A DNA stretch of 64,000 nt from Undibacterium hunanense (GTDB taxonomy: Bacteria > Pseudomonadota > Gammaproteobacteria > Burkholderiales > Burkholderiaceae_D), in assembly GCF_014284335.1 (NCBI RefSeq), contig NZ_JACOGF010000017.1, positions 62,001 through 126,000 of the forward strand. Reading direction: 5' to 3'. Shown in pieces: positions 21,589 to 59,300 of the stretch. Under the pieces are notes generated by a model. It was given only the letters and a program-made list of their open reading frames with translations. It ran no database searches and was not told the DNA's origin. Position 1 is the first letter of the stretch; each line of letters begins with the position of its first letter. Position numbers and translations under genes: made by a program.

Positions 21589-21855
21589 CACATATTAGCG
21601 TCGGTTTTGAAGTTGCGGTTGCTTTTGACTTTTGCAGTTCCCATGTGTCGACGCCGTTTGTGCGGTACAGAAAATGGAAAGAGAAGGGCCGGTGTTTGAG
21701 CCGCAGGCGAGTTTCGGACCTTCCCATTTTTTGTACCGCACAAACGGGAACCCCGCAGGGGCGACGACGCCTGGGTCGCCTTTTTGGCATCCCTTTTTGG
21801 CGAAGCAAAAAGGGATGTAGCTGCCGGTCTACCACCGGCCTGCAATCTTAAATAA
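21589..21855. repeat. Long structured element, copy 1
   Basis: In order: a tandem TTGAAGTTGCGGTTGC-type tract; a 15-bp perfect stem (21655-21669 with 21732-21746) extended by AAAATGG/CCATTTT (21671-21677 with 21724-21730); an inner stem GAAGGGCCG (21683-21691) with CGGACCTTC (21715-21723) closing a loop with TGTTTGAGC and GCGAGTTT; then CCCC-GCA-GGGG (21751-21761), an 11-bp stem CATCCCTTTTT (21788-21798) with AAAAAGGGATG (21807-21817) around GGCGAAGC, and GCCGGT/ACCGGC. Nearly identical to copy 2. Confidence 0.85.
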
Positions 21856-21976
21856 CCTATGCACGTATTTGAAAAGCTAATTCTCAAAGTCATACGATTA
21901 TGGCGTTAATAAGCTTCACGGCATACCACGAACGTCACTGGATTCCAGCCAAAAGCACGCTGGAATGACGTTAATC
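21841..21976. repeat. Trailing module with GAATGACG hairpin (after copy 1)
   Basis: An AT-rich stretch beginning TGCAATCTTAAATAA, passing CACGGCATACCACGAACG, and ending in the hairpin ATTCCAGC (21942-21949)/GCTGGAAT (21959-21966) followed by GACGTTAAT. The same order recurs at 22388-22533 and 59256-59375. Confidence 0.7.
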
Positions 21977-21980
21977 AGTG

Positions 21981-22265
21981 CACATATTAGCGTCGGTTTT
22001 GAAGTTGCGGCTGCTTTTGAAGTTGCGGTTGCTTTTGACTTATGCAGTTCCCATGTGTCGGCGCCGTTTGTGCGGTACAGAAAATGGAAAGAGAAGGGCC
22101 GGTGTTTGAGCCGCAGGCGAGTTTCGGACCTTCCCATTTTTTGTACCGCACAAACGGGAACCCCGCAGGGGCGACGACGCCTGGGTCGCCTTTTTGGCAT
22201 CCCTTTTTGGCGAAGCAAAAAGGGATGTAGCCGCCGGTCTACCACCGGCCTGCAATCTTAAATAA
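21981..22265. repeat. Long structured element, copy 2
   Basis: Nearly base-for-base the same as copy 1 from CACATATTAGCG to CAATCTTAAATAA, about 390 bp downstream in the same orientation. It differs by one extra 18-bp tandem unit (TTTTGAAGTTGCGGCTGC) in the 5' tract and a few substitutions. The near identity of copies 1 and 2 points to a recent duplication. Confidence 0.88.
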
Positions 22266-22342
22266 ACGTGTGCAGGTAGTTAAAAATCGAACTCAGAAAT
22301 ATCGCTTCGTTTTCTTGAACATACGTTGATCGAAGGCTGAGT

Positions 22343-22533
22343 GTTGGGCTGATGAAACGTAGCCCAACCTACGAATTTTCCCTGGCGTGCAATCGTAAAT
22401 TAACGAATGCAATCATCATAAAATCGACTCACAAAATCGCACGATACTGACATTAATAAACTACACGGCATACTACGAACGCCACTGGAGCGCCAGCCCG
22501 GTGGATTCCTGCCTGCGCAGGAATGACGTTAAT
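22343..22533. repeat. GTTGGGCT hairpin and second trailing module
   Basis: GTTGGGCT (22343-22350) pairs with AGCCCAAC (22361-22368). From 22388 the trailing module repeats (TGCAATCGTAAATTAACG, then CACGGCATACTACGAACG) and ends in the hairpin ATTCCTGC (22505-22512)/GCAGGAAT (22517-22524) plus GACGTTAAT. Confidence 0.65.
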
Positions 22534-22605
22534 ATAATCACGGCTTATCAAAAGACGGCAGTGCTAGTCTACACCTGAGACGTGAAATCTGAGATAGGGG
22601 CTCAT

Positions 22606-23025
22606 TCAATGTTTAGTCCCACAACTCCCCCCACCCTTCACCTGCATAGGCGCATCCCGCCCAGTCTCCCCGGCAAACCCCGCCGCCTGCAATTTTTCCA
22701 GATATTCCTGCCATACCTGAACCTGGTTTTCACCCAGCCAATACAGATAATCCCAGGTAAAAATCCCCGAACTATGCTGATCAGAAAAAATGGGCTTGAT
22801 CGCGTAATTACCAACTGGCTCTATGCCAACCACACCAACATCCCGCTTGCCAGTCTGTAACGTTTCCTGCCCCGGCCCATGGCCACGTACTTCAGCTGAT
22901 GGTGAAGACACACGCAGCAATTCAAACGGCAAAGAAAACTCCTTGCCATCATCAAAAGCGACTTCAAGTACCCGCGATTGTGTGCGGGCGTTCAGCGAAG
23001 TTGGTTGTGGTTTGCCTATGCTCAT
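22606..23025 (-). CDS. DUF971 (GBBH-like N-terminal domain) protein
   Basis: A 139-residue protein matching DUF971, a family related to the N-terminal domain of gamma-butyrobetaine hydroxylase. Typical segments are LEVAFDDGKEFSLPFELLRVSSPSAE, VGVVGIEPVGNYAIKPIF and SGIFTWDYLYWL. Family members are small and often associated with Fe-S protein assembly or quinone genes; no function is established here. It overlaps the HIT gene by 4 bp (ATGA 23022-23025) and forms an operon with it and the large dehydrogenase. Confidence 0.9.
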   Translation of the reverse strand: MSIGKPQPTSLNARTQSRVLEVAFDDGKEFSLPFELLRVSSPSAEVRGHGPGQETLQTGKRDVGVVGIEPVGNYAIKPIFSDQHSSGIFTWDYLYWLGENQVQVWQEYLEKLQAAGFAGETGRDAPMQVKGGGSCGTKH

Positions 23026-23450
23026 GACGAAAAATTCGAAATAATGGTTTGCCTCAACTGCGGCAATAACAGGTGACGTGCGTTCAGTGCAGGCTGCTCA
23101 GCCGCATCGCTGCGCGCAGCAGCCCAGATCGGGTTAGGGAAATGCGCATCATCGGTATAGCGCGGAATCAGATGCCAGTGCAGATGCGGCACCATATTGC
23201 CCAGGCTGGCGACATTCATCTTGTGCGGTTGCATGACTTCACGCAGCGCAGCTTCTACCTTCCAGACTGCCTGCATGAAAACGGCTCTTTCCGACTCAGA
23301 CAAATCCGTCATTTCCTTCACATGCGCATTCCAGATGACGCGACAAAAGCCGGGGTAGTTTGCATCATCAACGAGGATGACGCGAAACTGATCGGTGCTG
23401 ACGAGGATATCGCCAGCACCGGCATCACATAATTCACAAGCAATGGTCAT
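23022..23450 (-). CDS. HIT-family protein
   Basis: A 142-residue histidine-triad nucleotide-binding hydrolase or transferase. The HxHxHxx motif is in VPHLHWHLIPRY; an N-terminal CELC pair could bind zinc. The substrate is probably a nucleotide-linked phosphate ester, as for the family. Its start codon overlaps the stop of the dehydrogenase gene by 1 bp (TAATG), and its stop overlaps the DUF971 start, so the three genes are translationally coupled. Confidence 0.92.
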   Translation of the reverse strand: MTIACELCDAGAGDILVSTDQFRVILVDDANYPGFCRVIWNAHVKEMTDLSESERAVFMQAVWKVEAALREVMQPHKMNVASLGNMVPHLHWHLIPRYTDDAHFPNPIWAAARSDAAEQPALNARHLLLPQLRQTIISNFSS

Positions 23451-26400
23451 TACACCAGCACCCTTTCTATACCGCCGTTATTGGCTTTGGCGACATATTC
23501 CGGCATCCAGTTTGGTCCCAGGATATGCTTGGCCATTTCGACGACGATATAGTCTGCGGTCGTGCCAGAATCTTCATCGTAACGCGTCAAGCCTTGCAGA
23601 CAGGCCGGGCAGGATGTCAGGATTTTGACGTCACCTGTAAAGCCATCAGCACGCAGTTTGTCTGCGCCCTTGTTCATTTCTTCTTCTTTGCGGAAACGAA
23701 TCTGGGTAGAGATATCGGGACGCGACACCGCCAGCGTACCGGCCTCACCACAGCAGCGATCATTCTTCTCTATCTTCACATCATCAACCGTGGTGATCAG
23801 CGCATTCACCGTTTTTAACGGGTCCTGCAATTTCATCGGCGTATGGCAAGGGTCGTGATACATATAGCGCGTGCCATTCACCGCAGCCAGCTTGACATCT
23901 TTTTCCAGCAGATATTCATGGATATCGATGATGCGGCAACCAGGGAATATCTTGTCGAATTCATAGCCCTGTATCTGGTCATAACAGGTGCCGCAAGAAA
24001 CCACCACGGTTTTGATATCCAGATAGTTCAGGGTATTCGCCATGCGATGGAACAGCACGCGGTTGTCGGTGATCATCTTCTCGGCTTTGTCGAACTGACC
24101 GGCACTGCGTTGCGGGTAACCGCAGCACAGGTAACCTGGTGGCAGCACAGTTTGCACGCCTACATTCCACAACATCGCCTGAGTTGCCAGGCCGACTTGT
24201 GAGAACAGCCTTTCTGAACCACAGCCAGGGAAATAGAACACGGCTTCAGTATCTGCCGTCGTCGTCTGCGGATTGCGGATGATGGGCACCATCTTGTCAT
24301 CTTCAATATCCAGCAAGGCACGTGCGGTCTTCTTGGGCAGATTGCCCGGCATTTTCTTGTTGATGAAGTGAATCACCTGCTCGCGTATGACAGGCTTGCC
24401 CAGGCTGGCCGGTGGTGCCTTGGTCTGCTTTTTGGCGAGCTTTTTCAATACCGTATTGCCCATGCGCTGTGCCGCCACACCCCAGCCAAAAATCACCTGA
24501 CGCGCCGCCTTGATGGTGGCCGGGTCTTTGGCATTCAAAAAGAACATGGCCGATGCCGTGCCGGGGTTGAACGACTTCTTGTCCATCTTGCGCAAGAGAT
24601 TGCGCATATTCATCGACACATCACCGAAGTCGATATCAACCGGACAGGGGGTCACGCATTTATGGCAGACCGTGCAGTGGTCAGCCACATCTTCAAACTC
24701 TTCCCAGTGCTTGATGGAGATACCACGGCGCGTCTGTTCTTCATACAAGAAGGCTTCGACCAGCAACGATGTCGCCAGGATCTTGTTACGTGGCGAATAC
24801 AGCAAATTCGCACGTGGCACATGGGTTGCACAGACAGGTTTGCACTTGCCGCAACGCAGGCAGTCCTTGACGCTATTGGCGATCGCACCGATATCGCTTT
24901 GCTGCATGATCAGCGATTCATGGCCCATCAGGCCAAATGAAGGCGTATAGGCATTACGCAGATCAGCAGCAAACTCAGGCAGGTTCAGCAACTTGCCCTT
25001 GTTGAATCGGCCTTCAGGATCGATACGTAGCTTGTACGAACGGAAATCCTTGATTTCATCTTCAGTCAAAAATTCCAGTTTGGTGATACCAATGCCATGC
25101 TCGCCAGAGATAACGCCGTTGAGCGAACGGGCCAGTACCATGATGCGGGCAACGGCATGATGCGCCACCTGCAGCATTTCATAATCATCAGAATTGACCG
25201 GCAAGTTGGTATGCACATTGCCATCACCCGCGTGCATGTGCAAGGCGACGAAAACGCGGCTGCGCAAGATTTTTTTGTGCACGGCCACGCATTCATCAAG
25301 TATCAGCTTGAAGGCACCGCCATTGAAAATCTGACGCAATTGTGCGCGTATTTCTGTCTTCCACGATACCCTGATTGTCCTGTCCTGAACGATGGAAAAC
25401 ACGGTCGCATCCGGCTGAATCTTCAGTCTTTCATCGAGGACAAATTCGAGCTTGTCCAGGCCCAGGGCCAGCAGTTCTGCTTTCGCTGCGCTCAGGGGCT
25501 TGTCCAGATTATTCAGCAAATACGTCCAGCGTACTTCTGCTTCCTGCAACAGAGCGTCAGCCTGGTTGACGCGGTCTTCCAGCAGTTCAGATGCAGGGAT
25601 ATCATCGCCAGCGGCATCTTCACTCTTGCCCAGCGGCAGATTACGCCTGGCGAAAAAGCCCTTCAAAGCATCCAGCAGGGCCAGCTTGTTTTGTATCGAT
25701 AATTCGATATTGATGCGCTCTATGCCATCGGTGTATTCACCCATGCGATTGAGCGGTATCACCACGTCTTCATTGATCTTGAAGGCATTGGTGTGTTTGG
25801 AAATCGCTGCCGTCTTGGCGCGATCCAGCCAGAATTTTTTGCGTGCTTCCGGGCTGACGGCAACAAAGCCTTCACCAACGCGAGTATTGGCAATGCGTAT
25901 GACTTCAGACGCGGCCTGGGCCACGGCGTTTTCATCATCACCAACGATGTCGCCAAACAAGGCCATCTTGGGCAAGACACCGCGTTTGGATTTGGTCGTA
26001 TAACCAACTGCGCGCAGATAACGTTCATCCAGATGTTCCAGGCCCGCAAGGATGGCGCCACCCTTGCGGGTCTCGCTGTCGAGATAATCCTTGATTTCAA
26101 CGATACTCGGTATAGCATCACGTGCCTGGCCGAAGAATTCCAGGCAGACGGTGCGGGCAAATTTCGGCATCTTGTGCAGGATCCAGCGCGCCGACGTAAT
26201 CAAACCATCGCAGCCTTCTTTTTGCACACCCGGCAAACCCGCCAGGAATTTATCGGTCACATCCTTGCCCAGACCTTCTTTGCGGAAGACGCGGCCCTTG
26301 ATGTCTAGCTGCTCGGTCTTGAATGGCTGCTTTTCGCCCGGATGTGTCCATTCCAGCTTGAACTTGGCCATTTCCACATCATGGATTTTGCCCAGGTTAT

Positions 26401-27424
26401 GCTCAAGGCGTGTGACTTCCAGCCAGTCACCATTCGGGTCCACCATGCGCCACGAAGCCAGGTTATCCAGCGCCGTGCCCCACAATACCGCCTTCTTGCC
26501 ACCTGCATTCATGGCGACATTGCCGCCTATGCACGAAGCTTCGGCAGATGTCGGGTCAACCGCAAACACAAAACCTGCTTTTTCAGCCGCATCCGACACC
26601 CGTTTGGTGACGACACCGGCACCGGAATAAATCACCGCATAATCACGGTCCACACCGGGCAGGCGTGTCATTTCCACAGCACCCAGCTGTTCCAGTTTTT
26701 CGGTATTGATGACAGCCGACAAAGGCGTCAGTGGTATCGCACCACCGGTATAACCGGTGCCGCCGCCACGCGGGATGATGGTCAGACCCAGTTCGATACA
26801 GCTTTTGACCAGACCAGCCATTTCATCTTCGGTATCCGGCGTCAATACAACAAACGGATACTCGACACGCCAGTCAGTCGCGTCAGTGACATGCGATACC
26901 CGGCTCAGGCCATCGAACTTGATATTGTCTTTTGCGGTAAAACGCGCCAACAGCCTGTTGGCTTTCTTGCGCAAATCATAGGTATCACGGAATTCTTTGG
27001 AAAATGCAGCCACGGCCTTGCGTGCGCCCTGCACCAGCATCTCTACGCTATTGCTGCGCTCGGCATCGGCATCATTGGCAGTGCTGAGGCGGCGTTTTTC
27101 AACTTCGGCCAGCCTGTGGTTCAAGGCATCAATCAGATCCTGACGACGCTTGGGATTATCCAGCATATCGTCTTGTAGATACGGGTTGCGACGTACTACC
27201 CAGATATCACCCAGCACTTCATACAGCATGCGTGCAGATCGCCCTGTCTGGCGTTTGCCGCGCAATTGATCAAGCAATTGCCACGCATCTTCACCCAGCA
27301 GGCGGATGACGATTTCGCGGTCAGAAAACGAGGTGTAGTTATAAGGAATTTCCCGCACGCGGGTAGGAGTGGCACCTTGGGGCGTGTCAGCAAGCAGGGC
27401 CTGGATTTGGGCTGGAGCGTTCAT
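23450..27424 (-). CDS. DUF3683/FAD-linked oxidase/Fe-S fusion dehydrogenase
   Basis: A 1324-residue flavo-iron-sulfur protein. N-terminal DUF3683-type region (~1-185); FAD-binding PCMH domain (~195-370, [15 protein letters not shown]); FAD-oxidase C-terminal domain (~580-840, [22 protein letters not shown]); two 4Fe-4S motifs ([23 protein letters not shown]); and a CCG-type cysteine-rich region ([39 protein letters not shown]). This is the glycolate oxidase/D-lactate or D-2-hydroxyglutarate dehydrogenase layout (YdiJ-like), with an added N-terminus. It should oxidise a D-2-hydroxy acid and pass electrons to the membrane; the substrate is not evident. First gene of the operon with HIT and DUF971. 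Confidence 0.92.
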
Positions 27425-27871
27425 CAGTGACGTGGTTGGACGGATTTTTAAACGTCCATTCTAACTTATTGCGATGCACCACGCTCCAACAGCCTTGAAG
27501 TTTATACGGTAATGAATGGTGTTTCTGGCAATTTTCCAAATGGAATTTGGCAAAAACCGCAAGAAGTAGCGCAAAAACGGCTATCTTTGCAAATTCATCA
27601 CAATTGAGACCATGCAGAAGCCAGGTGGATAAATTTGATTTACATCGTTTGTCGTATTTTACACTTACCTGCAAGCCAGACTTGATCGTTTTTTACCAGA
27701 ACTCATTTCATCAATACGTCAACAGGGATGAAATGAGTTCTGCATTCATTCTGGTATCAAATCGTGACATGACTCTGGCTTCTCCAAAGCCAGCAAGCAG
27801 AGCCAGAACCGCAAAAAGCATGGTAAGGTTCTGCGACAGCACACCACAATCAAGCCACATTCAAACCACAA
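27425..27871. other. 447-bp spacer with one hairpin repeat
   Basis: The only structure seen is the inverted repeat at 27698-27741. The left part is the upstream region of the large dehydrogenase gene. I see no gene; short open frames lack ribosome sites. Confidence 0.6.
27698..27741. repeat. AGAACTCA hairpin repeat, copy 1
   Basis: AGAACTCATTTCAT (27698-27711) pairs perfectly with ATGAAATGAGTTCT (27728-27741), 14 bp around a 16-nt loop beginning CAATA. It lies downstream of the HAD phosphatase gene. A related hairpin lies at 29337-29367. Confidence 0.75.
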
Positions 27872-29173
27872 TCAGCCCAGCATCGCTGGCGCAGTCTTAC
27901 CGTATTTCAATGTGGTTTCCACTGGCAACCAGTTACCTGTCGATTCCTGGCGACCTTGCAGCAAAAAGCGCGGATGCGCTTCTTTGGCGGCATCGGCAGC
28001 CGCCTTTGACAATTCACCGATTTTACCTTTTTTCAGACGGTTCACGACCAGGCCGATTTCTGTTTCTGTGAAATCGCGCAACATGTCGTAATCTCCATCG
28101 CTGTCACCAGCGACAAATACCGGGCCATAGCCTTTTTTGGCAACCAGCTCGCGCTTGATGACAACAGATTTTCCTGGTCCCCAGTTCAAAGGCCAGTCTT
28201 TGCGGTAGGCGTTTTTGTAGACATCGCCGTTTTGCTCAAGACGCAGGCCCAGGACGTTTTCACGTTGTACGTGGTAGCCATATTTTGGATTGGTCGCGAA
28301 TACGGCAACCACATCTTCCAGCGAAGCGGTGCTGACATACACGTCGAAACCATTTTGACGGAAAGTGTTCATCAGTGTTGCCACTTCTGTGCACAGGCGT
28401 ATGCCATGAAAGTGGGCTGTCGTGATGACGCCAGCCACACCAGGCAGCGATGACGGGCTGCTGTATTTGGTCTTGGTCAGGCTCATGCCCAAATTGGCAT
28501 CATTCGATGCTTCTGCCAGGGCGCTGACTTCGCCGACTGTCATATTGGCGAAGAAGTAGATGACCCATGGGTAACCGACATTCACGCCATGCGTGTCATT
28601 GACTGCTTCGTACAGGAAGTAAAGCTTGGCGCGGAAATCCTGGAACTGGGCTGTTTCTACAATGTCTTCCAGGCTGCGGCTACCAGCCATGCCTTTGTAG
28701 TTACCATGCAGATAAGCGTAGTCACTGTCGAGATCGGTGCAAATGCTTTCCAGGTCCAACTGCTTGCCTGCGGCATTTTTGTAGTCCGCAGTAAAGTTAC
28801 CAGCAGGTACATTCTGACGGATGATGGCAGAAAACTCTACAGGCGTCAGTTTGAATGCCAGGTGATTGATCTGGTACATCAGCAGCGCTTCTTCGCAGTC
28901 ATTCATGATACTGGTGTTATCCCAGTCAAACACGGCGTAAGGCTTGCGCTTGGCAGAATAGCTTTTGCTGGCACTGCCATGGCGCGTGATCAGGGCCGCG
29001 ACCAATTCACGGTTGCGTGGTGACCATTTTGCGGCATCCAGATATACATTGCTTGCTGGTGCGGCTGGCTTTGCCAGTGCTGGCCCGGCCAAGGTGGCAG
29101 TTGCTGCTGTGGCCACCAGACCATGCAAAAATCCACGACGTGCTGGCTGGTTTGCTGATTTGCTATCTTGCAT
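27872..29173 (-). CDS. Tat-exported HAD-superfamily phosphatase (PchP-like)
   Basis: A 433-residue protein with an N-terminal twin-arginine signal (PARRGFLHGLVATAATA, cleavage near ALAKP). The catalytic HAD motif I is FDWDNTSIMND (DxD), a motif II-like Ser/Thr lies in VYVSTASLEDV, and motif IV-like acidic residues are in VFVAGDSDGDYDM. The overall pattern resembles phosphorylcholine phosphatase-type exported HAD enzymes; the substrate is not certain. It is a single gene flanked on both sides by related AGAACTCA hairpins. Confidence 0.8.
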   Translation of the reverse strand: MQDSKSANQPARRGFLHGLVATAATATLAGPALAKPAAPASNVYLDAAKWSPRNRELVAALITRHGSASKSYSAKRKPYAVFDWDNTSIMNDCEEALLMYQINHLAFKLTPVEFSAIIRQNVPAGNFTADYKNAAGKQLDLESICTDLDSDYAYLHGNYKGMAGSRSLEDIVETAQFQDFRAKLYFLYEAVNDTHGVNVGYPWVIYFFANMTVGEVSALAEASNDANLGMSLTKTKYSSPSSLPGVAGVITTAHFHGIRLCTEVATLMNTFRQNGFDVYVSTASLEDVVAVFATNPKYGYHVQRENVLGLRLEQNGDVYKNAYRKDWPLNWGPGKSVVIKRELVAKKGYGPVFVAGDSDGDYDMLRDFTETEIGLVVNRLKKGKIGELSKAAADAAKEAHPRFLLQGRQESTGNWLPVETTLKYGKTAPAMLG

Positions 29174-29336
29174 TTGATTTCCTTGTTATCGATATGCCTG
29201 AGCAAAAAGCTACGGCGGCCAGCCTGAAGGCTTTCAGGCAGACTAAAAGCATATTTTTTATTCTGTGAGAGAATCATGGTAAGCAGGAATTGTGACAAGC
29301 CTGTAAAACGGAGGTTTTTTTTGGAAAAAATCTATT

Positions 29337-29367
29337 AGAACTCACTTCATCAATAGGGGTGAGTTCT
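29337..29367. repeat. AGAACTCA hairpin repeat, copy 2
   Basis: AGAACTCAC (29337-29345) pairs with GTGAGTTCT (29359-29367) around TTCATCAATAGGG. The loop shares TTCATCAATA with copy 1. It lies downstream of the yqaA-type gene and upstream of the phosphatase gene, so it may terminate yqaA transcription. Confidence 0.7.
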
Positions 29368-29384
29368 CAAGTGAACAAACCCAA

Positions 29385-29876: not shown

Positions 29877-29908
29877 CGTGGTTTGTCATGTCTGTAAAAG
29901 GCATCCAT

Positions 29909-29914
29909 TATAAT
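29909..29914. promoter_or_regulatory. Candidate -10 box between yqaA and ilvA
   Basis: TATAAT at 29909-29914 lies inside the palindromic ATTATAAT, so it could serve either strand. A good -35 at 17 bp is not seen on either side, which limits the call. Confidence 0.3.
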
Positions 29915-29989
29915 GGCGCCGGTAATTTCAATTAAGTAAGCATCAAATTAGGCATCAATCCGTCATTTTTAACCATAAATAAGACATCC

Positions 29990-48060: not shown

Positions 48061-48065
48061 GCCTT

Positions 48066-49877: not shown

Positions 49878-49884
49878 TTAAATT

Positions 49885-50960: not shown

Positions 50961-50969
50961 AATTTTCCG

Positions 50970-51002
50970 GCACTGCCATCTTCTTGATGACAGTGCTTTT
51001 TT
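50970..51002 (+). terminator. Terminator or attenuator between prs and rplY
   Basis: GCACTGCCATC (50970-50980), loop TTCTT, GATGACAGTGC (50986-50996) and then Ts. One mismatch in 11 pairs. It could limit read-through into rplY, giving separate control. Confidence 0.75.
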
Positions 51003-51072
51003 CTGGGCCCCTGGTCGCGGGGGTTCAATACCGCAAAACAAATAAATGTTTTGCATTTTTTGGAGTAACACC

Positions 51073-51660
51073 ATGAAAGTAATCGCATTTGCACGCAAAG
51101 AACAGGGGACCGGAGCGAGCCGCCGCCTGCGCAATGCTGGCCAAACACCTGGCATCATCTACGGCGGTACAGAAGCACCGGTCGCCATCACTCTGGATCA
51201 CAATGCGCTGTACCATGCATTGAAAAAAGAAGCATTCCACTCTTCCATTCTGGACCTGGAAGTGGATGGCAAATCAGAAAAAGTATTGTTGCGCGACTTC
51301 CAGGTCCACGCATACAAACAACTGGTTTTGCACGCTGATTTCCAACGCGTAGATCCTAACCAGAAAATCCACGTTAAAGTGCCTCTGCACTTCATCAACG
51401 CTGACGTTTCCCCAGCAGTGAAACTGTCCGCAGCGGTCATCAGCCACGTTGCTGTTGAACTGGACATCTCCTGCCTGCCAGCAGAACTGCCAGAGTTCGT
51501 TGAAGTTGACCTGTCCAAACTGGAAGCTGGTCAATCCATCCACGTATCTCAACTGACATTGCCAAAAGGCGTGACAGCTGTTGTACACGGTGGTGACGCA
51601 ACTGTTGCTATCGCTGTTATCCCAGCCGGCGCAACCTCTGCAGAAGCTGAAGCAAAATAA
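51073..51660 (+). CDS. rplY: 50S ribosomal protein L25/general stress protein Ctc
   Basis: A 195-residue long (CTC/TL5-type) L25 that binds 5S rRNA. N-terminal L25 domain (~1-95, [23 protein letters not shown]) and C-terminal beta domain (~96-185, VPLHFIN). The ATG at 51073 follows GGAG by 7 bases. The Ala/Glu-rich tail is normal for this form. Confidence 0.97.
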
Positions 51661-51681
51661 TTTGCATTTTGCAAGTTGATG

Positions 51682-51707
51682 AAAGCCGCCTCCGGGCGGC
51701 TTTTTTT
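51682..51707 (+). terminator. Rho-independent terminator after rplY
   Basis: AAAGCCGCC-TCC-GGGCGGCTTTTTTT, 22 bp downstream of the rplY stop. A classical short GC stem with T-run. Confidence 0.93.
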
Positions 51708-51790
51708 ATTTTCTGCGAGCGGGATACTTTGCCCCATCTTCATGTCAGAATCAGTCATATCGTTTTAACCCGATTTACGGAGTTCTACGC

Positions 51791-53536
51791 ATGCCCTCAT
51801 TCTCCCGCCGCAAGCTATACCTGAGTCTGTTCATCCCCCTGTGTTTCAGCCTGGTCAGCCCTGTCAGTCAGGCACAGTTGGCAGCGGGCATCAAATACGA
51901 CACCAGCTACCCCATCATCAGCCCGGTATATGCTAAACAGGGCATGGTGGCGACTGAGCAGGCACTGGCCAGCCAGGTAGGCCTGGACATACTCAAGCGC
52001 GGCGGGAATGCCGTGGATGCTGCCGTAGCAGTTGGCTTTGCCCTGGCAGTCGTCTTGCCGAACGCAGGCAATATCGGTGGTGGTGGCTTCATGGTCATCC
52101 ATGACAGCAAATCGGGCAAGGATATCGCTCTCGATTTTCGTGAACTGGCACCAGAAAAAGCCACGCGCGACATGTACCTGGATGCGAATGGCAAAGTCAT
52201 TTCCGGCAAATCCCTGTTCAGCCATCTGGCGGTCGGCGTACCTGGCACGGTAGCAGGCATGGATCTGGCCCTGCGCAAATATGGCAGCATGAAATGGAAG
52301 GATGTCATCGCCCCCGCCATACGTCTGGCCGAACAGGGTTTTGAGATAAGCCCGCATCTGGCAGAGGTGATCGATTCAAGCAAAAACCAGTTGGGTAAAT
52401 GGCCTGCCAGCCGTGCGATTTTTTTTAAAGCTGATAAGCCGATACAGGCTGGTGAGCGCCTGCTGCAAAAAGACCTCGCACAATCGCTGCGTCTGATTGC
52501 CGAGCAAGGCGCAGTGGCTTTTTATGAAGGTGCGATCGCCAAAAAGATCGTCGCCGAAATGCAGCAACATCAGGGCATGATCTCTGCCAGTGACCTGAAG
52601 AATTACAAGGCAGTAGAACGCATCCCCGTGCGCGGCAATTATCGCGGCTATGAAGTCGTCTCCATGCCACCACCGAGTTCGGGGGGTGTACACATCATCC
52701 AGATGCTGAACATGCTGGAACATTTCCCCCTGAAAGAACAGGGTGCCAACAGTGCCCAGACTTTGCATCAGCTCAGTGAAGTGATGAAACTGGCCTATGC
52801 CGACCGTTCCGAATTTTTGGGTGACCCGGATTATTACAAAGTACCTACCAAAGGCCTGACTTCGCGCGCCTATGCCGATGAATTGGTGAAGAAAATACAG
52901 CCAGACCGTGCCACACCCTCTGCCGATATCAAGCCCGGCAAACCCCTGCCCTATGAAAGCGACCAGACCACGCATTATAGTGTCGCGGACCAATTCGGCA
53001 ATGTGGTCGCCACCACCTATACCTTGAACCTGAACTTTGGCAGCGGCATTGTCGCCAGTGGCACCGGCATCGTGCTGAACAATGAAATGGACGATTTCTC
53101 GGTCAAGGCCGGCGTACCGAATGCCTTTGGCCTGCTGGGTGGTGACGCGAACGCAGTACAGAGCTGGAAACGGCCTTTGAGCTCGATGTCACCCACTATC
53201 GTACTGAAGGATGGTAAACCCTTCCTGGTGACTGGCAGCCCCGGTGGCAGCCGCATCATCACCACGACACTGCAAACGATATTGAATGTCATCGATCATG
53301 ACATGAATGTCGCCGAAGCCACAATTTCACCGCGCATCCATCAGCAATGGATGCCAGACCAATTACGCTATGAAAAAGGGATCAGCATCGATACCCTGCG
53401 TCTGCTGGAGAAAAAAGGCCAGATCCTGCGTCCGGCAGCTACTTTGGGCAAAACCCAGACCATACAGGTCTATGCGCAGGGATTCGCTGGTTATTCAGAC
53501 CCGCGCAGCCCAGATGGCAGTGCGGTCGGATTTTAA
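51791..53536 (+). CDS. ggt: Gamma-glutamyltransferase
   Basis: A 581-residue periplasmic precursor that hydrolyses or transfers the gamma-glutamyl group of glutathione. Signal peptide ~1-29 (cleavage VSQAQ-L). Self-cleavage gives large and small subunits at Thr393 (DQTTHYSVAD), the new N-terminal nucleophile. SMPPPSSGG, GNIGGGGFMVIHD and the small-subunit SPGGSRIITT are present. ACGGAG is upstream. Here ggt stands where pth often follows rplY. Confidence 0.96.
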   Translation: MPSFSRRKLYLSLFIPLCFSLVSPVSQAQLAAGIKYDTSYPIISPVYAKQGMVATEQALASQVGLDILKRGGNAVDAAVAVGFALAVVLPNAGNIGGGGFMVIHDSKSGKDIALDFRELAPEKATRDMYLDANGKVISGKSLFSHLAVGVPGTVAGMDLALRKYGSMKWKDVIAPAIRLAEQGFEISPHLAEVIDSSKNQLGKWPASRAIFFKADKPIQAGERLLQKDLAQSLRLIAEQGAVAFYEGAIAKKIVAEMQQHQGMISASDLKNYKAVERIPVRGNYRGYEVVSMPPPSSGGVHIIQMLNMLEHFPLKEQGANSAQTLHQLSEVMKLAYADRSEFLGDPDYYKVPTKGLTSRAYADELVKKIQPDRATPSADIKPGKPLPYESDQTTHYSVADQFGNVVATTYTLNLNFGSGIVASGTGIVLNNEMDDFSVKAGVPNAFGLLGGDANAVQSWKRPLSSMSPTIVLKDGKPFLVTGSPGGSRIITTTLQTILNVIDHDMNVAEATISPRIHQQWMPDQLRYEKGISIDTLRLLEKKGQILRPAATLGKTQTIQVYAQGFAGYSDPRSPDGSAVGF

Positions 53537-53553
53537 GCTTCAGATTTCCAGGC

Positions 53554-54135
53554 TCAGGCTTCCGTAAGAATGATATCCATAGGGATATCATGGATGTCAG
53601 CAGTAAAATCGGCCTGCATGCATTGATAGGCTATGCCTATGGTGAGCGGTCGCGGTGTTTTTTCCAGGGTGCGGTCATAATAGCCGCCACCATACCCAAG
53701 GCGGTACCTGCCCGCATTAAAGCCTACGCACGGTATCAATAGCGCAGCTGGTTGCATCCACTGCGTACGCTGGGCCGGCACTGGTATGCCATATTCATCA
53801 GCCAGCATGGTATCGCCTGGTTGCCAGCTTAAAAACTGCAAGGGCTGCTGCCGGACAAGCACCAGTGGCAGCGCCAGTTGCACGCCGGCATCTGACAATG
53901 CGGCATAGGTTGCCTGCAAATCAGGCTCGCCCCGTATCGGCCAGTACACCGCCAGGCTGGTGATCTGTTGCTGCCTGCAATATTGCAGCAACTTTTCACC
54001 CAGTTCCCTGTCCCATTGTTGCCTGACATTCATTGTGATATCGCGGCGTTTTTGCAGTAAACTTTTCCGCAAGTCCTGACGACTGAATGCTGCTTCTGTG
54101 TGCATCGGATGTGCGCTGGCCTTGGGCTGTGTCAT
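53554..54135 (-). CDS. 5-formyltetrahydrofolate cyclo-ligase
   Basis: A 193-residue enzyme that turns 5-formyl-THF into methenyl-THF with ATP. Family marks are LRKSLLQKRRDI, AVYWPIRGEPD, LLIPCVGFN and the C-terminal YRLGYGGGYYDRTL loop. The ATG at 54135 gives a normal length; earlier starts would overlap the transglycosylase gene. It is divergent from that gene with only 34 bp between starts, so their promoters overlap or lie inside the genes. Confidence 0.92.
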   Translation of the reverse strand: MTQPKASAHPMHTEAAFSRQDLRKSLLQKRRDITMNVRQQWDRELGEKLLQYCRQQQITSLAVYWPIRGEPDLQATYAALSDAGVQLALPLVLVRQQPLQFLSWQPGDTMLADEYGIPVPAQRTQWMQPAALLIPCVGFNAGRYRLGYGGGYYDRTLEKTPRPLTIGIAYQCMQADFTADIHDIPMDIILTEA

Positions 54136-54169
54136 ACTGTCAGAAATGTAATCAAAAAACTGTCTAAAG

Positions 54170-56134
54170 ATGTCTGTGAAAAAAAGTTTAGCTGGACTTG
54201 GCCTGATGATCTTAGCAGGTTTCGGCGCATCCACTGTCGCCAGCGCCGCTGCGGCAAAAAAAGGCCTGATCAATGATGATGACCGCTTCATGGCCTTGCG
54301 CGACGCCGCCTTCCATGATGACTCCGGCAATGCAGAGCAGCATGCGGCGGCACTCAAGAATTACGAAATCCCCTCTTATATTGATTATTATCGCCTGCGT
54401 GCCCGCCTGGTGAAAACCACGAATGCCGAATTTCGTGATTTTCTGAGCAAGTATGAAGGCAGCGCCATCGCTGACCGTCTGCGTAATGACTGGCTGTTGT
54501 TGCTGGGCAAACGTGGCGAATGGGAAACATTCGATCAGCAATATCCCATGTTTGTGGTAGCCGATGACAATCAGTTACGCTGCTATGCCGTGCTGTCAAA
54601 GGCACTTAAGCAGCAAAAAGTCGCCAGCGACGCACGCAATTTGCTGAATGCGCCACGCGATTATGGCGAAGGTTGCTATGCCCTGGTCACTTACCTCGCA
54701 GGCAATGGACAATTCAGCAATAACGATTTGTGGGCACAAGTCCGCATGGCTGGTGAAAACGGTGCGCTGCCACTGGCGCAGCGCCTGGGCAAATTACTCA
54801 ACGTGCCAGAAAAACAGATGGCCGATGCCATCGACAAGCCTGCTGCCGTCACCAAAAAAGCCCCCGAAGCTGGTCGCACCGCACATGAACTCTATCTGAT
54901 CGCACTGGGCCGTCTGGCCAAGACCGACCATGAACAGGCTGCCAGCCTGCTGAGTCGCTATACCAGCCAGTTCAGCGATATCGAAAAATCCACAGGCTGG
55001 GCACAAATTGCCCTGCAGGCAGCGCAGAAGCTGGAACCGGATGCACTGGGCTACTGGCAGCGTGCCGACACTGCCCCGCTGTCGCAGGAAGCCTATCAAT
55101 GGCGGGTACGTACTGCCTTGCGCGAAGGTGACTGGAAGCTGGTAAAAAACGGCATCACCAACATGCCACCGGCCTTGAAGGCAGACCCTGCCTGGGTGTA
55201 CTGGTATGGCCGCGCCCTGAAGGCCGAAGGCAAGAATGAAGAAGCACGCGCGCAATTTGCCAGCATCGCCGAACAACTGCATTTCTATGGGCAACTGGCA
55301 CTGGAAGAACTGGGACAAAAAATTGGCGTCCCCATTACCGTCAAACCAGTAACGCCGGAAGAACTGGCGCCAATGGAAAAAAATCCCAACCTGCAAAGAG
55401 CCTTGAAGTTCTACGCCATGAACCTGCGCTTTGAAGGTACGCGTGAATGGAACTGGGAATTGCGCAAGATGAGCGAACGCCAGCATCTGGCGGCTGCTGA
55501 ACTGGCACGCCAGAACAATTTGCTGGACCGCATGGTGAACACCTCGGACCGTACCAAGGGTGAACTCGACTTCAGCCAGCGCTACCCTACCCCTTTCAAT
55601 GAAAGCATGTACAAAACCACGCAGGCACTGGGGCTGGACATGGCCTGGGTATATGGCCTGATACGCCAGGAATCACGCTTCATCATGAACGCCAAATCGC
55701 ATGTGGGTGCATCTGGCCTGATGCAACTGATGCCGGCTACCGCACGCTATGTCGCCAAGAAAATTGGCCTGGGCAAATTTGTGCCAGAACAAGTCAATGA
55801 TGTGGATACCAATATTGCCCTGGGTACCAATTATCTCAATATGGTACTGACCGACCTTGGTGGTTCGCAAGCGCTGGCATCCGCTGCCTATAATGCTGGC
55901 CCTGGACGCCCCAGAGCCTGGCGTGCAAAATTGAGCCGCCCGGTAGAAGGGGCGATTTTTGCAGAGACTATTCCCTTCAACGAAACCCGTGGTTACGTGA
56001 AGAATGTGTTGTCGAATGCCACCTACTATGCGGCCCTGTTCGAGAAAAAACCCCAGTCCCTGAAAAGCCGTCTGGGCATGGTTGTACCGAAGGGAATGAC
56101 GGCAACCGATGCGGATATTCCCGCCAATTTTTAA
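54170..56134 (+). CDS. Soluble lytic murein transglycosylase
   Basis: A 654-residue periplasmic enzyme of the Slt70 type. Signal peptide ~1-26. A long alpha-superhelical domain (~30-470) is followed by the catalytic SLT domain (~480-620) with Glu501 in GLIRQESRFI, GASGLMQLMPATA and AAYNAGPGRPRAW. It cleaves the glycan strand to 1,6-anhydro-muropeptides. GST and cca follow on the same strand within 13 bp and 10 bp. Confidence 0.94.
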   Translation: MSVKKSLAGLGLMILAGFGASTVASAAAAKKGLINDDDRFMALRDAAFHDDSGNAEQHAAALKNYEIPSYIDYYRLRARLVKTTNAEFRDFLSKYEGSAIADRLRNDWLLLLGKRGEWETFDQQYPMFVVADDNQLRCYAVLSKALKQQKVASDARNLLNAPRDYGEGCYALVTYLAGNGQFSNNDLWAQVRMAGENGALPLAQRLGKLLNVPEKQMADAIDKPAAVTKKAPEAGRTAHELYLIALGRLAKTDHEQAASLLSRYTSQFSDIEKSTGWAQIALQAAQKLEPDALGYWQRADTAPLSQEAYQWRVRTALREGDWKLVKNGITNMPPALKADPAWVYWYGRALKAEGKNEEARAQFASIAEQLHFYGQLALEELGQKIGVPITVKPVTPEELAPMEKNPNLQRALKFYAMNLRFEGTREWNWELRKMSERQHLAAAELARQNNLLDRMVNTSDRTKGELDFSQRYPTPFNESMYKTTQALGLDMAWVYGLIRQESRFIMNAKSHVGASGLMQLMPATARYVAKKIGLGKFVPEQVNDVDTNIALGTNYLNMVLTDLGGSQALASAAYNAGPGRPRAWRAKLSRPVEGAIFAETIPFNETRGYVKNVLSNATYYAALFEKKPQSLKSRLGMVVPKGMTATDADIPANF

Positions 56135-56146
56135 GTGTAAAAACTC

Positions 56147-56860
56147 ATGCAAGATACTGAAATGCAACCAGCACTGGCAGCCATGCTGGACCAAGAACGC
56201 GCCGGCTTGCGACTGATCATCGGCAATAAAAATATTTCATCCTGGTCCATGCGCCCATGGGTAGCGATGAAGGCATTTGGCATTCCTTTTGAAGAAGTAC
56301 GCATCGTGCTGGACCGGCAAGACACCACCAGCCGCATTGCCGAATATTCGGCCGCTGGCCGTGTGCCGGTCTTGCTGGCGGGTGACATCACCGTCTGGGA
56401 TTCACTGGCAATTTGCGAATACCTGGCCGAGCAGTTTTCCATACTCAACCTGTGGCCGGAAGACGTGGCGGCACGCGCAACGGCACGCAGCATCTGTGCC
56501 GAAATGCATTCCGGCTTTTCATCCCTGCGCTCGGACATGCCTATGGATATCCGTGCTTCGCTGCCCGGCAAGGGCCGCACCATAGGCTCGCAAGCTGACA
56601 TAGGCCGCATCAGCGAAATCTGGGAAGACTGCCTGTCCCTGTATGGCGCGCACGAATTCCTGTTTGGTGCCTTTTCCATTGCCGATGCTTTCTACGCACC
56701 GGTAGTCATGCGTTTTCGTACCTATGGCGTATCGCTGGCCCCTGCCCTGCAGGCGTATGCTGATCGCGTACTGGCTCATCCCGCTGTTGCCCAGTGGGTC
56801 CGGGAAGCACTGATGGAAACGGAAGGCCTGCCCAGGCATGATGACAGCGCAGAAGACTGA
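56147..56860 (+). CDS. Glutathione S-transferase family protein
   Basis: A 237-residue protein with N-terminal thioredoxin-like GST domain (~22-100; LIIGNKNISSWSMRPWVA as the active-site start, GRVPVL and VWDSLAICEYLAE) and an all-helical C-terminal domain (~110-225). The first ~20 residues may be an extension if a later start is used. Second gene of the slt-GST-cca run. The substrate is not known. Confidence 0.93.
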   Translation: MQDTEMQPALAAMLDQERAGLRLIIGNKNISSWSMRPWVAMKAFGIPFEEVRIVLDRQDTTSRIAEYSAAGRVPVLLAGDITVWDSLAICEYLAEQFSILNLWPEDVAARATARSICAEMHSGFSSLRSDMPMDIRASLPGKGRTIGSQADIGRISEIWEDCLSLYGAHEFLFGAFSIADAFYAPVVMRFRTYGVSLAPALQAYADRVLAHPAVAQWVREALMETEGLPRHDDSAED

Positions 56861-56869
56861 CGCAGCAGC

Positions 56870-58081
56870 ATGAAGACCTATATCGTCGGCGGTGCCGTGC
56901 GTGATGCCCTGCTGGGTTTGCCCGTGCAGGACCGCGATTTCGTGGTGGTCGGTGCGTCACCCGAAGAAATGCTGGCCAAAGGCTATCTGCCGGTGGGTAA
57001 AGACTTCCCGGTATTTTTGCATCCGAAAACCCACGACGAATATGCGCTGGCACGTACTGAGCGAAAAACTGCTGCCGGATACAAGGGCTTTGTCTTTCAT
57101 ACCGATGCTGATGTCACACTGGAAGAAGACCTGATACGCCGCGACCTGACCATCAATGCCATGGCACAGGATGATGCAGGCAATATCATTGACCCGTATG
57201 GCGGTCTGCGTGATTTGCATGACAGGGTATTTCGCCATGTATCCATGGCATTTTGCGAAGACCCAGTGCGCATCTTGCGCCTGGCCCGTTTTGCCGCCCG
57301 CTTTGCCATACCGCCACAGAATTTCCATGTAGCAGAAGAAACCACTAGCCTCATGCAAGGCATGGTAGCCGACGGTGAAGTAGATGCCCTGGTGGCTGAA
57401 CGTGTTTGGCAAGAGCTGTCACGCGGCCTGATGGAAGCACGGCCTTCGCGCATGTTTGCCGTACTGCGCAGTTGCGGTGCCCTGCAAAGATTATTGCCTG
57501 AATTGAATGCCCTTTTTGAACCAGGTACCGCCAGTGAACGCGGCCAGCAACTGATGCAGATACTGGATGCCACAGCCAGCCACGCCAGCCACAGGCAAGC
57601 ACTAAGTACCCGTTTTGCCATACTCCTGCATGACCTGGCATTAGTGCCTGCGGGCAGCGACACACTGTCCGTTGAAAAACTGCGGGTAAAACTGGCAGAT
57701 GGCATTTGCCAGCGTCTCAAAGTACCGGCAGAATGCCGCGACATGGCCGTCATGCTGGCGCGTGAACATTTGCACATCAAAGACGCCGCATCACTGTCCG
57801 CCGCAGATACGGTTGATTTGCTGACACGTTGCGATGCCCTCCGCAAACCAGAACGTTTTCTTGAGATGCTGAATGCCTGCGCCTGCCTGTTTCTTGAAGA
57901 GTTGGCAACAGATACCGTCTTCGCCCCGCAGTTACAGTTAAGCCAGGCCCTCGATATCGTGTTGAAAGTGAATGGCGGTGAGATTGCCAGCCTGTATGCC
58001 GCCCAACCACAGCAAATTCCGATTGCCATACGCGCAGGCAGAATAAACGCGCTGGAAGCCGCATCAAACGCGCAACAATAG
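56870..58081 (+). CDS. cca: CCA tRNA nucleotidyltransferase
   Basis: A 403-residue class II enzyme that adds CCA to tRNA 3' ends. GGAVRD (residue ~6), the DRDFVVVG metal site, and RRDLTINAMAQ are present. An HD-type segment (LLHDLALV) follows near residue 260, as in the gammaproteobacterial multifunctional form. Length is close to E. coli Cca (412). It begins 10 bp after the GST gene. Confidence 0.95.
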   Translation: MKTYIVGGAVRDALLGLPVQDRDFVVVGASPEEMLAKGYLPVGKDFPVFLHPKTHDEYALARTERKTAAGYKGFVFHTDADVTLEEDLIRRDLTINAMAQDDAGNIIDPYGGLRDLHDRVFRHVSMAFCEDPVRILRLARFAARFAIPPQNFHVAEETTSLMQGMVADGEVDALVAERVWQELSRGLMEARPSRMFAVLRSCGALQRLLPELNALFEPGTASERGQQLMQILDATASHASHRQALSTRFAILLHDLALVPAGSDTLSVEKLRVKLADGICQRLKVPAECRDMAVMLAREHLHIKDAASLSAADTVDLLTRCDALRKPERFLEMLNACACLFLEELATDTVFAPQLQLSQALDIVLKVNGGEIASLYAAQPQQIPIAIRAGRINALEAASNAQQ

Positions 58082-58133
58082 AAGTTTTACTCTCAAAACC
58101 GGCGCTTATCTGGAATAATCAGGCGAGATCATC

Positions 58134-58157
58134 TACAATGCATTGTGCAGTGCACAA
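58134..58157 (+). promoter_or_regulatory. Candidate promoter and palindrome before the GNAT gene
   Basis: TACAAT (58134-58139) is a good -10 box. It is followed directly by the perfect palindrome TTGTGCA-G-TGCACAA (58143-58157), placed at the likely start of transcription, where a bound repressor would block it. No -35 close to consensus is seen. Confidence 0.4.
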
Positions 58158-58179
58158 AAGCTACCCATAAGGAGCTGCC

Positions 58180-58866
58180 ATGAATGCGTCAGATATGTTT
58201 CCTGAAGATCCAAAACACTTGCTAAACGCTGCTAACAAACCATCGAAATCGACTGTTTTCGTCAAGGAATTGTCGGAAAAAGACAGACATCGCATCCTGC
58301 GTCATTTTCTTGGCCTCGAAGAAAGCGACCGCCTGCTGCGCTTCGGCACCTATCTACCCGATGTCATGATAGAAAAATATGTAGAAGGCATCGATTTTTC
58401 ACGCGACAAGGTGTTTGGCGTCATCAGCCACCATTTCCGCATCGTCGGCGTCGGTCATCTGGCATATGCACCGCGCTCTGACAAGGATGAAGTCACAGAC
58501 AAGGACAAGGTCGCCGAATTTGGCGTATCCGTGTCCAAAATCGCACGTGGTAAAGGCATAGGTTCAAAACTGTTTGAACGCGGCGCCATCCACTGCCGCA
58601 ATGACGATGTCGATACCCTGTACATGCACTGCCTGTCATCCAATCAGACGATGATACACATCGCCAAAAAAGCCGGCATGGAAATCCATCGCGAATACGG
58701 CGAAGCCGACGCCTACCTGAAAATCCTGCCCGCCGACGCCGTCAGCGTCCTCAAGGAAGCCATGCAGGAACAGGTCGCAACCATTGACTACACCATCAAA
58801 GCCAATACCCGCGCCGCCGCCAAATGGCTCAGCAATCTGCCGGGGATGAAGGATAGTTCAAAGTAG
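58180..58866 (+). CDS. GNAT-family acetyltransferase
   Basis: A 228-residue protein with a GNAT domain (~25-190). The acetyl-CoA loop ARGKGIGSKLF (Q/RxxGxG/A) is intact, preceded by the beta strands FGVISHHFRIVGVGHLAY and AEFGVSVSKI. The C-terminus is helical. AAGGAG lies ahead of the ATG. Substrate not known. Downstream is the repeat block with structured element copy 3. Confidence 0.87.
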   Translation: MNASDMFPEDPKHLLNAANKPSKSTVFVKELSEKDRHRILRHFLGLEESDRLLRFGTYLPDVMIEKYVEGIDFSRDKVFGVISHHFRIVGVGHLAYAPRSDKDEVTDKDKVAEFGVSVSKIARGKGIGSKLFERGAIHCRNDDVDTLYMHCLSSNQTMIHIAKKAGMEIHREYGEADAYLKILPADAVSVLKEAMQEQVATIDYTIKANTRAAAKWLSNLPGMKDSSK

Positions 58867-58984
58867 ATTTGCCAGATTTGGCTAAAGGACAAGACTGCTC
58901 AGCACAGAGAAAAACAGGAGGAACGAAACCTGGTTTTCTATATATTTCAACCATTGATCAATCCAGTAACAAGAAGCTTGGCTG

Positions 58985-59300
58985 AAGGTAGCATTGACGT
59001 TGCTTTTGACTTTGCTTTTGACTTTGGGGTTGCCTTTGAATTTTGCAGTTCCCATGTGTCGATGCCTTTGCTGCAAGGCAGAAAATGGAAAAAGAAGGAT
59101 CGATGTTTGAGCGTAGCGAGTTTTCGATCCTTCCCATTTTTTGACTTGCAGCAAAGGGAACCCCCTTTAGGGGGCAGCGACGCCTCGGTCGCCTTTTTGG
59201 CCCACCTTTTTGGCGAAGCAAAAAGGTGGGTAGCCGCCGGTCTACCACCGGCCAGCAATCGCAAATGACGTATGCAGGCACTTAGAAAATCTACCTAATC
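58985..59300. repeat. Long structured element, copy 3
   Basis: Same order of parts as copies 1 and 2 but with different stem sequences: CCTTTGCTGCAAG (59065-59077) pairs with CTTGCAGCAAAGG (59145-59157); AAAATGG/CCATTTT (59082-59088, 59134-59140); GAAGGATCGA (59094-59103)/TCGATCCTTC (59124-59133) round TGTTTGAGC...GCGAGTTT; CCCACCTTTTT/AAAAAGGTGGG around GGCGAAGC; and the shared GCCGGTCTACCACCGGC. The base changes keep pairing. Confidence 0.85.

What the first reader, a model, noticed from the sequence alone, without database searches (positions are those of the whole stretch)
21589..59300. Long structured element in three copies with covarying stems, always between convergent genes
Copies at 21589-21855, 21981-22265 and 58985-59300 share the same series of stems. 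Copies 1 and 2 are almost identical, but copy 3 has a different outer stem (CCTTTGCTGCAAG with CTTGCAGCAAAGG instead of CGTTTGTGCGGTACA with its complement), a different inner stem and a different GGCGAAGC stem (CCCACC vs CATCCC). All remain paired, while loop motifs (TGTTTGAGC...GCGAGTTT, GGCGAAGC, GCCGGTCTACCACCGGC) are unchanged. Compensatory change with constant loops suggests selection on folded RNA or DNA, or on a binding protein. I recall similar blocks in other Burkholderiales but know no described function.
Basis: partly seen in the sequence, partly recalled or inferred. Interest (0 to 1): 0.78.

Follow-up and report, generated by a model that had tools for sequence, protein, structure and literature searches.

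The report
Widespread folding DNA repeat between genes
The window holds three copies of a non-coding repeat, present dozens of times in this genome, whose single strand can fold into a capped hairpin plus a knotted second hairpin, and relatives with the same cap on quite different stems turn up in several bacterial phyla, which points to an undescribed, selected structure rather than an accident.

Summary
Confirmed in part and enlarged. The three copies are real (head-hairpin DNA fold z -7.4 and -9.6) and belong to 33 places in this genome; R1 finds relatives in 59 of 145 family genomes. The cap TGTNTGAGCG-N-AGCGAGTT recurs on unrelated stems in Pseudomonadota, Bacteroidota, Clostridia, Desulfo-, Nitrospirales and Patescibacteria records (243 of 291 distinct instances have a stem, control 62 of 1447). 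Isolated stem mismatches are G.T 200 against A.C 29, so one strand is the folded one. The 'constant' GGCGAAGC loop can form an H-type pseudoknot (TCGCC/GGCGA) that is replaced jointly elsewhere (CTTGAT/ATCAAG, GGGAC/GTCCC, GTGCCC/GGGCAC). 'Always convergent' is wrong: 11-13 convergent, 6-8 tandem, 0 divergent of 19 sites. Within the genus much covariation is copy replacement: in 13 of 13 element pairs at shared sites a paralog is closer than the ortholog. Copy 3 is absent in four relatives. I found no Rfam family, no enriched neighbouring gene and no paper. Best reading: a REP-like element recognised as a folded single strand and spread or overwritten in trans; RNA not excluded.

The parts
21589..21847 (+). 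Copy 1, whole element (T-rich tail to ..TGCAATC)
21592..21635 (+). Copy 1, 5' tail of TTTTGAAGTTGCGG / GGTTGCTTTTGAC repeats (length differs between copies and species)
21654..21668 (+). Copy 1 outer stem, 5' arm (type A); 3' arm 21733-21747
21683..21692 (+). Copy 1 inner stem, 5' arm; 3' arm 21714-21723; holds a G.A mismatch and a G.T wobble
21693..21713 (+). Copy 1 head loop TGTTTGAGC-CGCAG-GCGAGTT (lengthened GNA mini-hairpin, extra C-G pair)
21776..21780 (+). Copy 1 pseudoknot strand a (TCGCC), can pair with GGCGA at 21799-21803
21788..21817 (+). Copy 1 3' hairpin b (CATCCCTTTTT-GGCGAAGC-AAAAAGGGATG)
21823..21839 (+). Copy 1 GC hairpin GCCGGTCTACCACCGGC
21981..22257 (+). Copy 2, tandem duplicate of copy 1 (core parts at copy 1 coordinates + 410; head loop 22103-22123, pseudoknot strand a 22186-22190, hairpin b 22198-22227)
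58990..59260 (+). Copy 3, whole element, in the convergent spacer between a GNAT-like and an AsnC/Lrp-like gene (names by resemblance, not tested); absent there in four relatives
59065..59077 (+). Copy 3 outer stem, 5' arm (type D); 3' arm 59145-59157
59094..59103 (+). Copy 3 inner stem, 5' arm; 3' arm 59124-59133
59104..59122 (+). Copy 3 head loop TGTTTGAGCGTAGCGAGTT (GNA mini-hairpin)
59189..59193 (+). Copy 3 pseudoknot strand a (TCGCC), can pair with GGCGA at 59212-59216
59201..59230 (+). Copy 3 3' hairpin b (CCCACCTTTTT-GGCGAAGC-AAAAAGGTGGG)
59236..59252 (+). Copy 3 GC hairpin

Best explanation
A dispersed, non-coding, REP-like repeat whose unit of function is the folded motif strand: a long variable stem capped by TGTNTGA-GC-GNA-GC-GAGTT, followed by an H-type pseudoknot and a GC hairpin. 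Shown from sequence: copies, stem pairing, strand bias, pseudoknot covariation, presence/absence between relatives, and concerted evolution within a genome. Inferred: an unidentified trans-acting factor reads the cap (and perhaps the pseudoknot) on single-stranded DNA exposed at replication or repair, uses the stems only as scaffold, and thereby spreads copies or overwrites existing ones. This would explain why stems change freely but stay paired, why each genome has its own subfamilies, and why shared sites carry different subtypes. Ends of genes would be where insertions are tolerated.
For: 33 places in the genome, 36 in the sister; 59 of 145 genomes of the family, 24 of 44 genera. Stem in 243 of 291 distinct instances against 62 of 1447 with mismatched arms; G.T 200 against A.C 29, 33 against 10 with one per named record. 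GNA middle base A 102, C 88, T 49, G 4, and the longer cap adds a C-G pair in 17 of 17: this fits the very stable d(GCGNAGC) DNA mini-hairpin (recalled). Pseudoknot: 26 of 51 named records have at least 5 complementary bases against 13-14% in controls, 13 of 51 at least 6 against 2-3%, with many different sequences. Copy 3 absent in G1032, G1031, G1034 and G1026. Shared sites: own paralog closer than ortholog in 13 of 13 element pairs. In named species 28 convergent, 35 tandem, 6 divergent of 69 sites; in 34 tandem single sites the element has the gene direction 13 times and the opposite 21 times, which argues against a plain 3'-UTR RNA.
Against: No mobiliser found: 140 flanking genes show no enriched Pfam or PADLOC family. 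No target-site duplication or clean boundary was defined. Replication-strand bias, expected for a lagging-strand ssDNA mechanism, is not consistent: G117 8 of 8 but G033 4 of 12 in the same sense. G.T wobbles fit RNA as well as ssDNA. No match of three tested elements, one in the phage and two in the plasmid collection. Concerted evolution could be ordinary RecA gene conversion, and for the window site the closest paralog outside the tandem copy (0.92) is hardly closer than the ortholog (0.91).
Confidence: 0.45

Rival explanations
1. A structured RNA: the motif strand is transcribed (read-through or own promoter) and acts as an RNA, for example a 3'-end stabiliser, sRNA or protein-binding RNA with a pseudoknot.
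For: Single-strand bias and pseudoknot covariation are what an RNA gives; sites lie at gene 3' ends, divergent in 0 of 19 own sites and 6 of 69 elsewhere (2 of 47 to 5 of 66 with other ORF cut-offs).
Against: Orientation relative to the flanking genes is not fixed (13 same, 21 opposite); inverted pairs recur; 1 and 0 sigma-70-like sites in the two scans, against 0.5 and 0.4 in shuffles; no Rfam family.
Confidence: 0.3
2. A bidirectional transcription terminator between convergent genes.
For: Convergent and tandem sites dominate; in the own genome the inner hairpin is flanked by an A-tract and a T-tract; the scan finds 4 terminator-like sites in copy 3 against 0.6 in shuffles.
Against: Copies 1/2: 1 against 1.3. 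A terminator needs no constant cap, pseudoknot or long outer stem, and many relatives elsewhere show no such T-tract after the head hairpin (by eye).
Confidence: 0.1
3. No function: palindromes kept perfect by template switching or gene conversion.
For: Hairpins are swapped between copies and subtypes are homogenised per genome.
Against: A mutational corrector should act on both strands alike and give perfect palindromes; here G.T is kept over A.C 7 to 1, one G.T pair is present in 30 of 30 heads, G.A mismatches persist, the cap is constant across phyla, and a pseudoknot (not a palindrome) covaries.
Confidence: 0.1

Closest known systems
REP / BIME / REPIN repeats with REP-associated tyrosine transposase (RAYT)
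   Same: Dispersed, extragenic, hairpin-forming, high copy, often inverted pairs, genome-specific families, IS insertion sites (REP side from passages of PMC3116915, and recall).
   Different: About 250 bp instead of 20-40 bp; conserved cap rather than a conserved GTAG/CGTC tag (tag and size from the abstract of PMC3733652 in the listing and recall); pseudoknot; variable stems; no transposase family among the 25 commonest families of 140 flanking genes.
Stem-loop sequence (SLS) families of Cozzuto et al. 2008 (PMC2267715; abstract, outline and two passages seen)
   Same: Intergenic repeated families with a common predicted fold.
   Different: As I understand it, those families are defined by sequence similarity within 40 genomes; 'GAGCG' and 'pseudoknot' occur 0 times in its main text. 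Whether one of its families is a member was not tested.
Palindromic candidate RNAs of human microbiomes (PMC8040213; passages seen)
   Same: Palindromic, several mostly in Bacteroidetes, one near phage genes; could include Bacteroidota members of this family.
   Different: Sequences not seen here, so overlap untested; 230 of 250 are described there as possible terminators.
d(GCGNAGC) DNA mini-hairpin
   Same: The cap contains GC-GNA-GC.
   Different: A chemical motif known in vitro and in aptamers (recalled; only listings and abstract starts seen), not a genetic element.

Membership tests
REP / REPIN with RAYT | Extragenic palindromic repeats in high copy, often inverted pairs | tested here: met
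   33 places, inverted pairs
REP / REPIN with RAYT | Conserved GTAG or CGTC tag at the foot of a 20-40 bp palindrome | tested here: not met
   Element is about 250 bp; in the own-genome copies the conserved part is the cap and the stems vary, and I saw no such foot tag (by eye)
REP / REPIN with RAYT | RAYT (Y1 transposase) flanked by the repeats | tested here: inconclusive
   No transposase family is among the 25 most frequent of 174 Pfam families in 140 flanking genes; whole genomes were not searched for RAYT
Intrinsic terminator | GC-rich hairpin followed by a T-run, above chance | tested here: inconclusive
   Copy 3: 4 against 0.6; copies 1/2: 1 against 1.3
Known Rfam RNA family | Match at or above the gathering score | tested here: not met
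   Only tRNAs away from the element in the window and in 15 loci; four weak matches far below gathering score at E up to 1 on copy 3
H-type pseudoknot (structure class) | Loop of a hairpin complementary to an adjacent strand, with covariation | tested here: met
   By sequence only: 26 of 51 named records at 5 or more bases against 13-14%; many pair sequences
Insertion element | Empty site in relatives | tested here: met
   Copy 3 site without the element in G1032, G1031, G1034, G1026; loss in those lineages not formally excluded
Insertion element | Defined ends with or without target duplication; transposase | tested here: inconclusive
   No clean boundary in the one close comparison; no enriched linked transposase

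The most novel reading that the evidence does not exclude
A class of selfish or host-used nucleic acid that spans bacterial phyla and is defined only by form (GNA-capped hairpin plus H-type pseudoknot): a single-strand homing element that overwrites its own copies in place, with an unknown, widely distributed recognition factor.
Probability: 0.3. Interest if true: 0.9.

Novelty: new variant of a known kind. Interest (0 to 1): 0.72.

Why it matters
If true, a structure found in genomes of several phyla, and easily dismissed as repeats or spurious ORFs, is under selection in single-stranded form and obeys rules (constant cap, free stems, covarying pseudoknot) that tell what recognition factor to look for. 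It also gives a case of concerted evolution in sister species: same addresses, different tenants. Both are directly testable in harmless laboratory strains.

Tried and rejected
Replication-strand bias: perfect in G117 (8 of 8) but not in G033 (4 of 12 in the same sense); dropped. Three more genomes with 4, 3 and 1 matches were not analysed, and three had none.

Cargo cassettes: in G119 two inverted pairs flank a 194-aa ORF and a 536-aa ankyrin protein. The ankyrin gene is found in 1 of 141 genomes. But in G1032 a pair flanks a gene that lies at the same place in the own genome, and the ankyrin-repeat protein between two own copies is not similar to the G119 one (BLAST E 0.5), so cassette mobility is only a lead.

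Linked defence or transposase genes: none enriched in 140 of 185 flanking proteins; 44 longer than 470 aa and one more were left out. Plasmid or phage carriage: no match for three elements, one searched in phages and two in plasmids. Phage- and plasmid-like loci with the 19-base motif but without a good stem count as elements only where the stem score passed. One locus (L276) is probably coding by chance.

Corrected on rechecking: the L177 copy was paired with the wrong sister copy; one search repeats the comparison with the right one (ortholog 0.85, own paralog 0.90), and with both possible partners for one L183 copy; the outcome is unchanged. The hand tally of gene contexts was replaced by the scripted one.

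Print searches. Six strings of the cap and 3' hairpin gave no paper; the 12-base core gave 45 papers, of which the 30 listed look unrelated by title and abstract start. So the claim that it is undescribed rests on these, on Rfam, and on an open-access library only.
Full report
WHAT IS THERE. The window copies share, on the + strand, a T-rich tail of TTGCTTTTGAC-like repeats, GCAGTTCCCATGTGTCG, an outer stem, CAGAAAATGG pairing with CCATTTTTTG, an inner stem, a head loop TGTTTGAGC..GCGAGTT, a small hairpin, GTCGCC, a T/A-rich hairpin with loop GGCGAAGC, and a GC hairpin. Folding exceeds shuffles (RNA z -6.4 for copies 2 and 3; minus strand of copy 2 z -4.95; DNA z -7.4 and -9.6 for the heads of copies 1 and 3, with the + strand 4.3-4.5 kcal/mol more stable than the - strand).

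COPIES. BLAST with copy 3 gave 40 matches in the own genome; 30 distinct heads were aligned and made into model R1. R1 gives 64 rows in the genome, which are 33 places, 31 of them also matched on the reverse strand. Outer stems fall into types A 6, B 6, C 19, D 2. Inner stems recur on different outer stems: the parts are swapped as hairpins. Covariation on the 30 rows: 95.1% of cells paired against 86.8% shuffled, 83 both-sided cells against 24.9, score 0.283 against 0.128; slid versions at most 0.071. Two measures are weaker: pairs with a both-sided change 11 against 8.1 (13 of 500 shuffles as high) and further pair types 23 against 22.7. Related rows inflate such counts.

RELATIVES. R1 hits 59 of 145 genomes of the family, 24 of 44 genera (strict filters), and 6 of 250 in the order, two of them the own genome and a family member. 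A strict pattern hits 3 of 369 genomes in the class and 3 of 299 in the phylum, the own genome included in each. So the close form is common in the family and sparse outside. These include Variovorax, Ralstonia, Herminiimonas, Marinobacter, Luteimonas, Stenotrophomonas, Haemophilus, Rodentibacter, Flavobacterium, Cellulophaga, Parabacteroides, Sphingobacterium, Lachnospiraceae, Desulfobacula, Nitrospirales and Patescibacteria records. In the 118 stretches 136 instances were read and 99 have at least 10 of 14 flanking bases paired, G-T counted (no control for that measure). With a control: 243 of 291 distinct instances, own and same-genus copies included, have a stem score of 6 or more, against 62 of 1447 when arms of different instances are combined. 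Without the own-genome loci it is 211 of 259.

WHICH STRAND. Isolated mismatches inside these stems are G.T 200, A.C 29, A.G 103, C.T 13. The 291 are not independent, so I repeated it with one instance per named record: G.T 33, A.C 10, A.G 38, C.T 6 in 96 of 113 records with a stem; 20 records have more G.T than A.C and 4 fewer. The motif strand is the one that is kept folded. The cap can be drawn as tandem G.A pairs, two or three G-C pairs and a GNA triloop; the middle base is A 102, C 88, T 49, G 4, and where the cap is one pair longer that pair is C-G in 17 of 17. The G.A pairs are a drawing, not a test.

PSEUDOKNOT. In the own genome 27 of 32 copies have TCGCC with a downstream GGCGA (simple string test). 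In other taxa the two change together: CTTGAT/ATCAAG, CTTGAA/TTCAAG, CTTGAC/GTCAAG, TGTG/CACA, CGTG/CACG, GGGAC/GTCCC, GTGCCC/GGGCAC, TAGCC/GGCTA, CACC/GGTG. Of 124 distinct hairpins, 81 have 5 or more complementary bases against 19-20% in two controls. With one per named record, 26 of 51 against 13-14%, and 13 of 51 with 6 or more against 2-3%; so about half of the records show no clear pairing at that length. My first, narrower loop definition gave 38 of 147 at 5 or more against 8-10%. In many the loop ends in AAG or GAG. This is inferred from sequence; no structure was probed.

SETTING. Own genome: of 23 sites 4 are at contig ends; of 19 judged, 12 convergent and 7 tandem (ORFs of at least 120 aa), 13 and 6 (150 aa), or 11 and 8 (200 aa); 0 divergent each time. 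Two of the convergent ones face an rve-type IS transposase. Collection loci: 28 convergent, 35 tandem, 6 divergent of 69 (convergent against divergent p about 1e-4); 27/34/5, 25/32/4 and 20/25/2 with other cut-offs. Gene calls were longest-ORF heuristics. In 34 tandem single sites orientation is mixed, 13 with and 21 against the genes. Of 140 flanking proteins the commonest Pfam family has 4 members, and no PADLOC family has more than 2.

EVOLUTION. Copy 3 lies in the spacer between a GNAT-like and an AsnC/Lrp-like gene (names by resemblance); in G1032 the spacer has other sequence, and in G1031, G1034 and G1026 it is short and without the element. Copies 1/2 are one copy in G1032, with an in-place G-C to A-T change in the inner stem while a G.A mismatch is kept, and with the whole 3' hairpin replaced although the aligned 904 columns are 88% identical. 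G1032 has 36 copies (loci for 30). By the rule of a 150-bp flank match, 12 of 21 own loci share flanks with a sister copy; one of them (L182) rests on 177 bp that also match elsewhere, so 11 are safe. At these 11 loci 13 element pairs can be compared, 5 of the loci with only one flank matched. Ortholog identity is 0.68-0.91; the best paralog in the own genome is closer in 13 of 13 (for the window site it is its own tandem copy; without that, 0.92 against 0.91), and the best sister paralog is closer in 12 of 13, a tie in the last (one pairing corrected, one ambiguous pairing tried both ways). Sister types among 32 are A 20, D 7, other 4, C 1. So addresses are partly shared but contents are homogenised per genome. 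This explains much of the in-genome covariation without selection; the strand bias, the cap and the pseudoknot do not follow from it.

READING. I commit to a single-strand-recognised, REP-like element spread or overwritten in trans (0.45), with RNA function next (0.30). The factor, the ends and the movement itself are inferred. Failing the REP tests (tag, size) lowers 'it is a REP', not 'it works like a REP'.

Noticed in passing
Own-genome copies C13:1322-, C23:64178+, C29:205-, C18:127459+, C64:174- (L183, L195, L193, L196, L194): Five of 32 copies are cut exactly after CTTTGGCGAAGC by one of two other sequences (GGTGTGTGTCAAGG.. in three, GTAACTATTCAGC.. in two); an rve-type transposase lies next to two of the first kind. 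The 3' loop looks like an IS target.
   Followed up: partly
L017 around 487-590 (own genome C64): A different small repeat (GTGTAGCAGGGG...CCTGCGTAAC) sits inside the head loop of a copy; similar letters lie in the tail of the C19 copy and in the G1032 spacer at the copy 3 site.
   Followed up: no
L101 2227-3203 and L102 2233-4281 (G119): Inverted pairs flank a 194-aa ORF without Pfam match and a 536-aa ankyrin protein, with similar inner borders, as in a cassette.
   Followed up: partly
L256 12241-12259: The 19-base cap motif lies about 0.6 kb after a Zot-family gene of a filamentous-phage-like contig that also has a Rep_trans gene, next to a weak hairpin; contigs L213, L240 and L268 share its upstream letters. 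It may be related to ssDNA packaging or replication there.
   Followed up: partly
window 21937-21970, 22484-22520, 59345-59375 and near many own copies: A second hairpin repeat (CTGGATTCCAGC..GCTGGAATGACG / GGCTCCAGCCT.CGCTGGAGCGACG) follows many copies; it resembles dRS3-like repeats (recalled).
   Followed up: no
L090-L096 (G055): Several (+,-) pairs with GTTGCC-type tails, 86-94% alike, in one genome suggest amplification there.
   Followed up: partly
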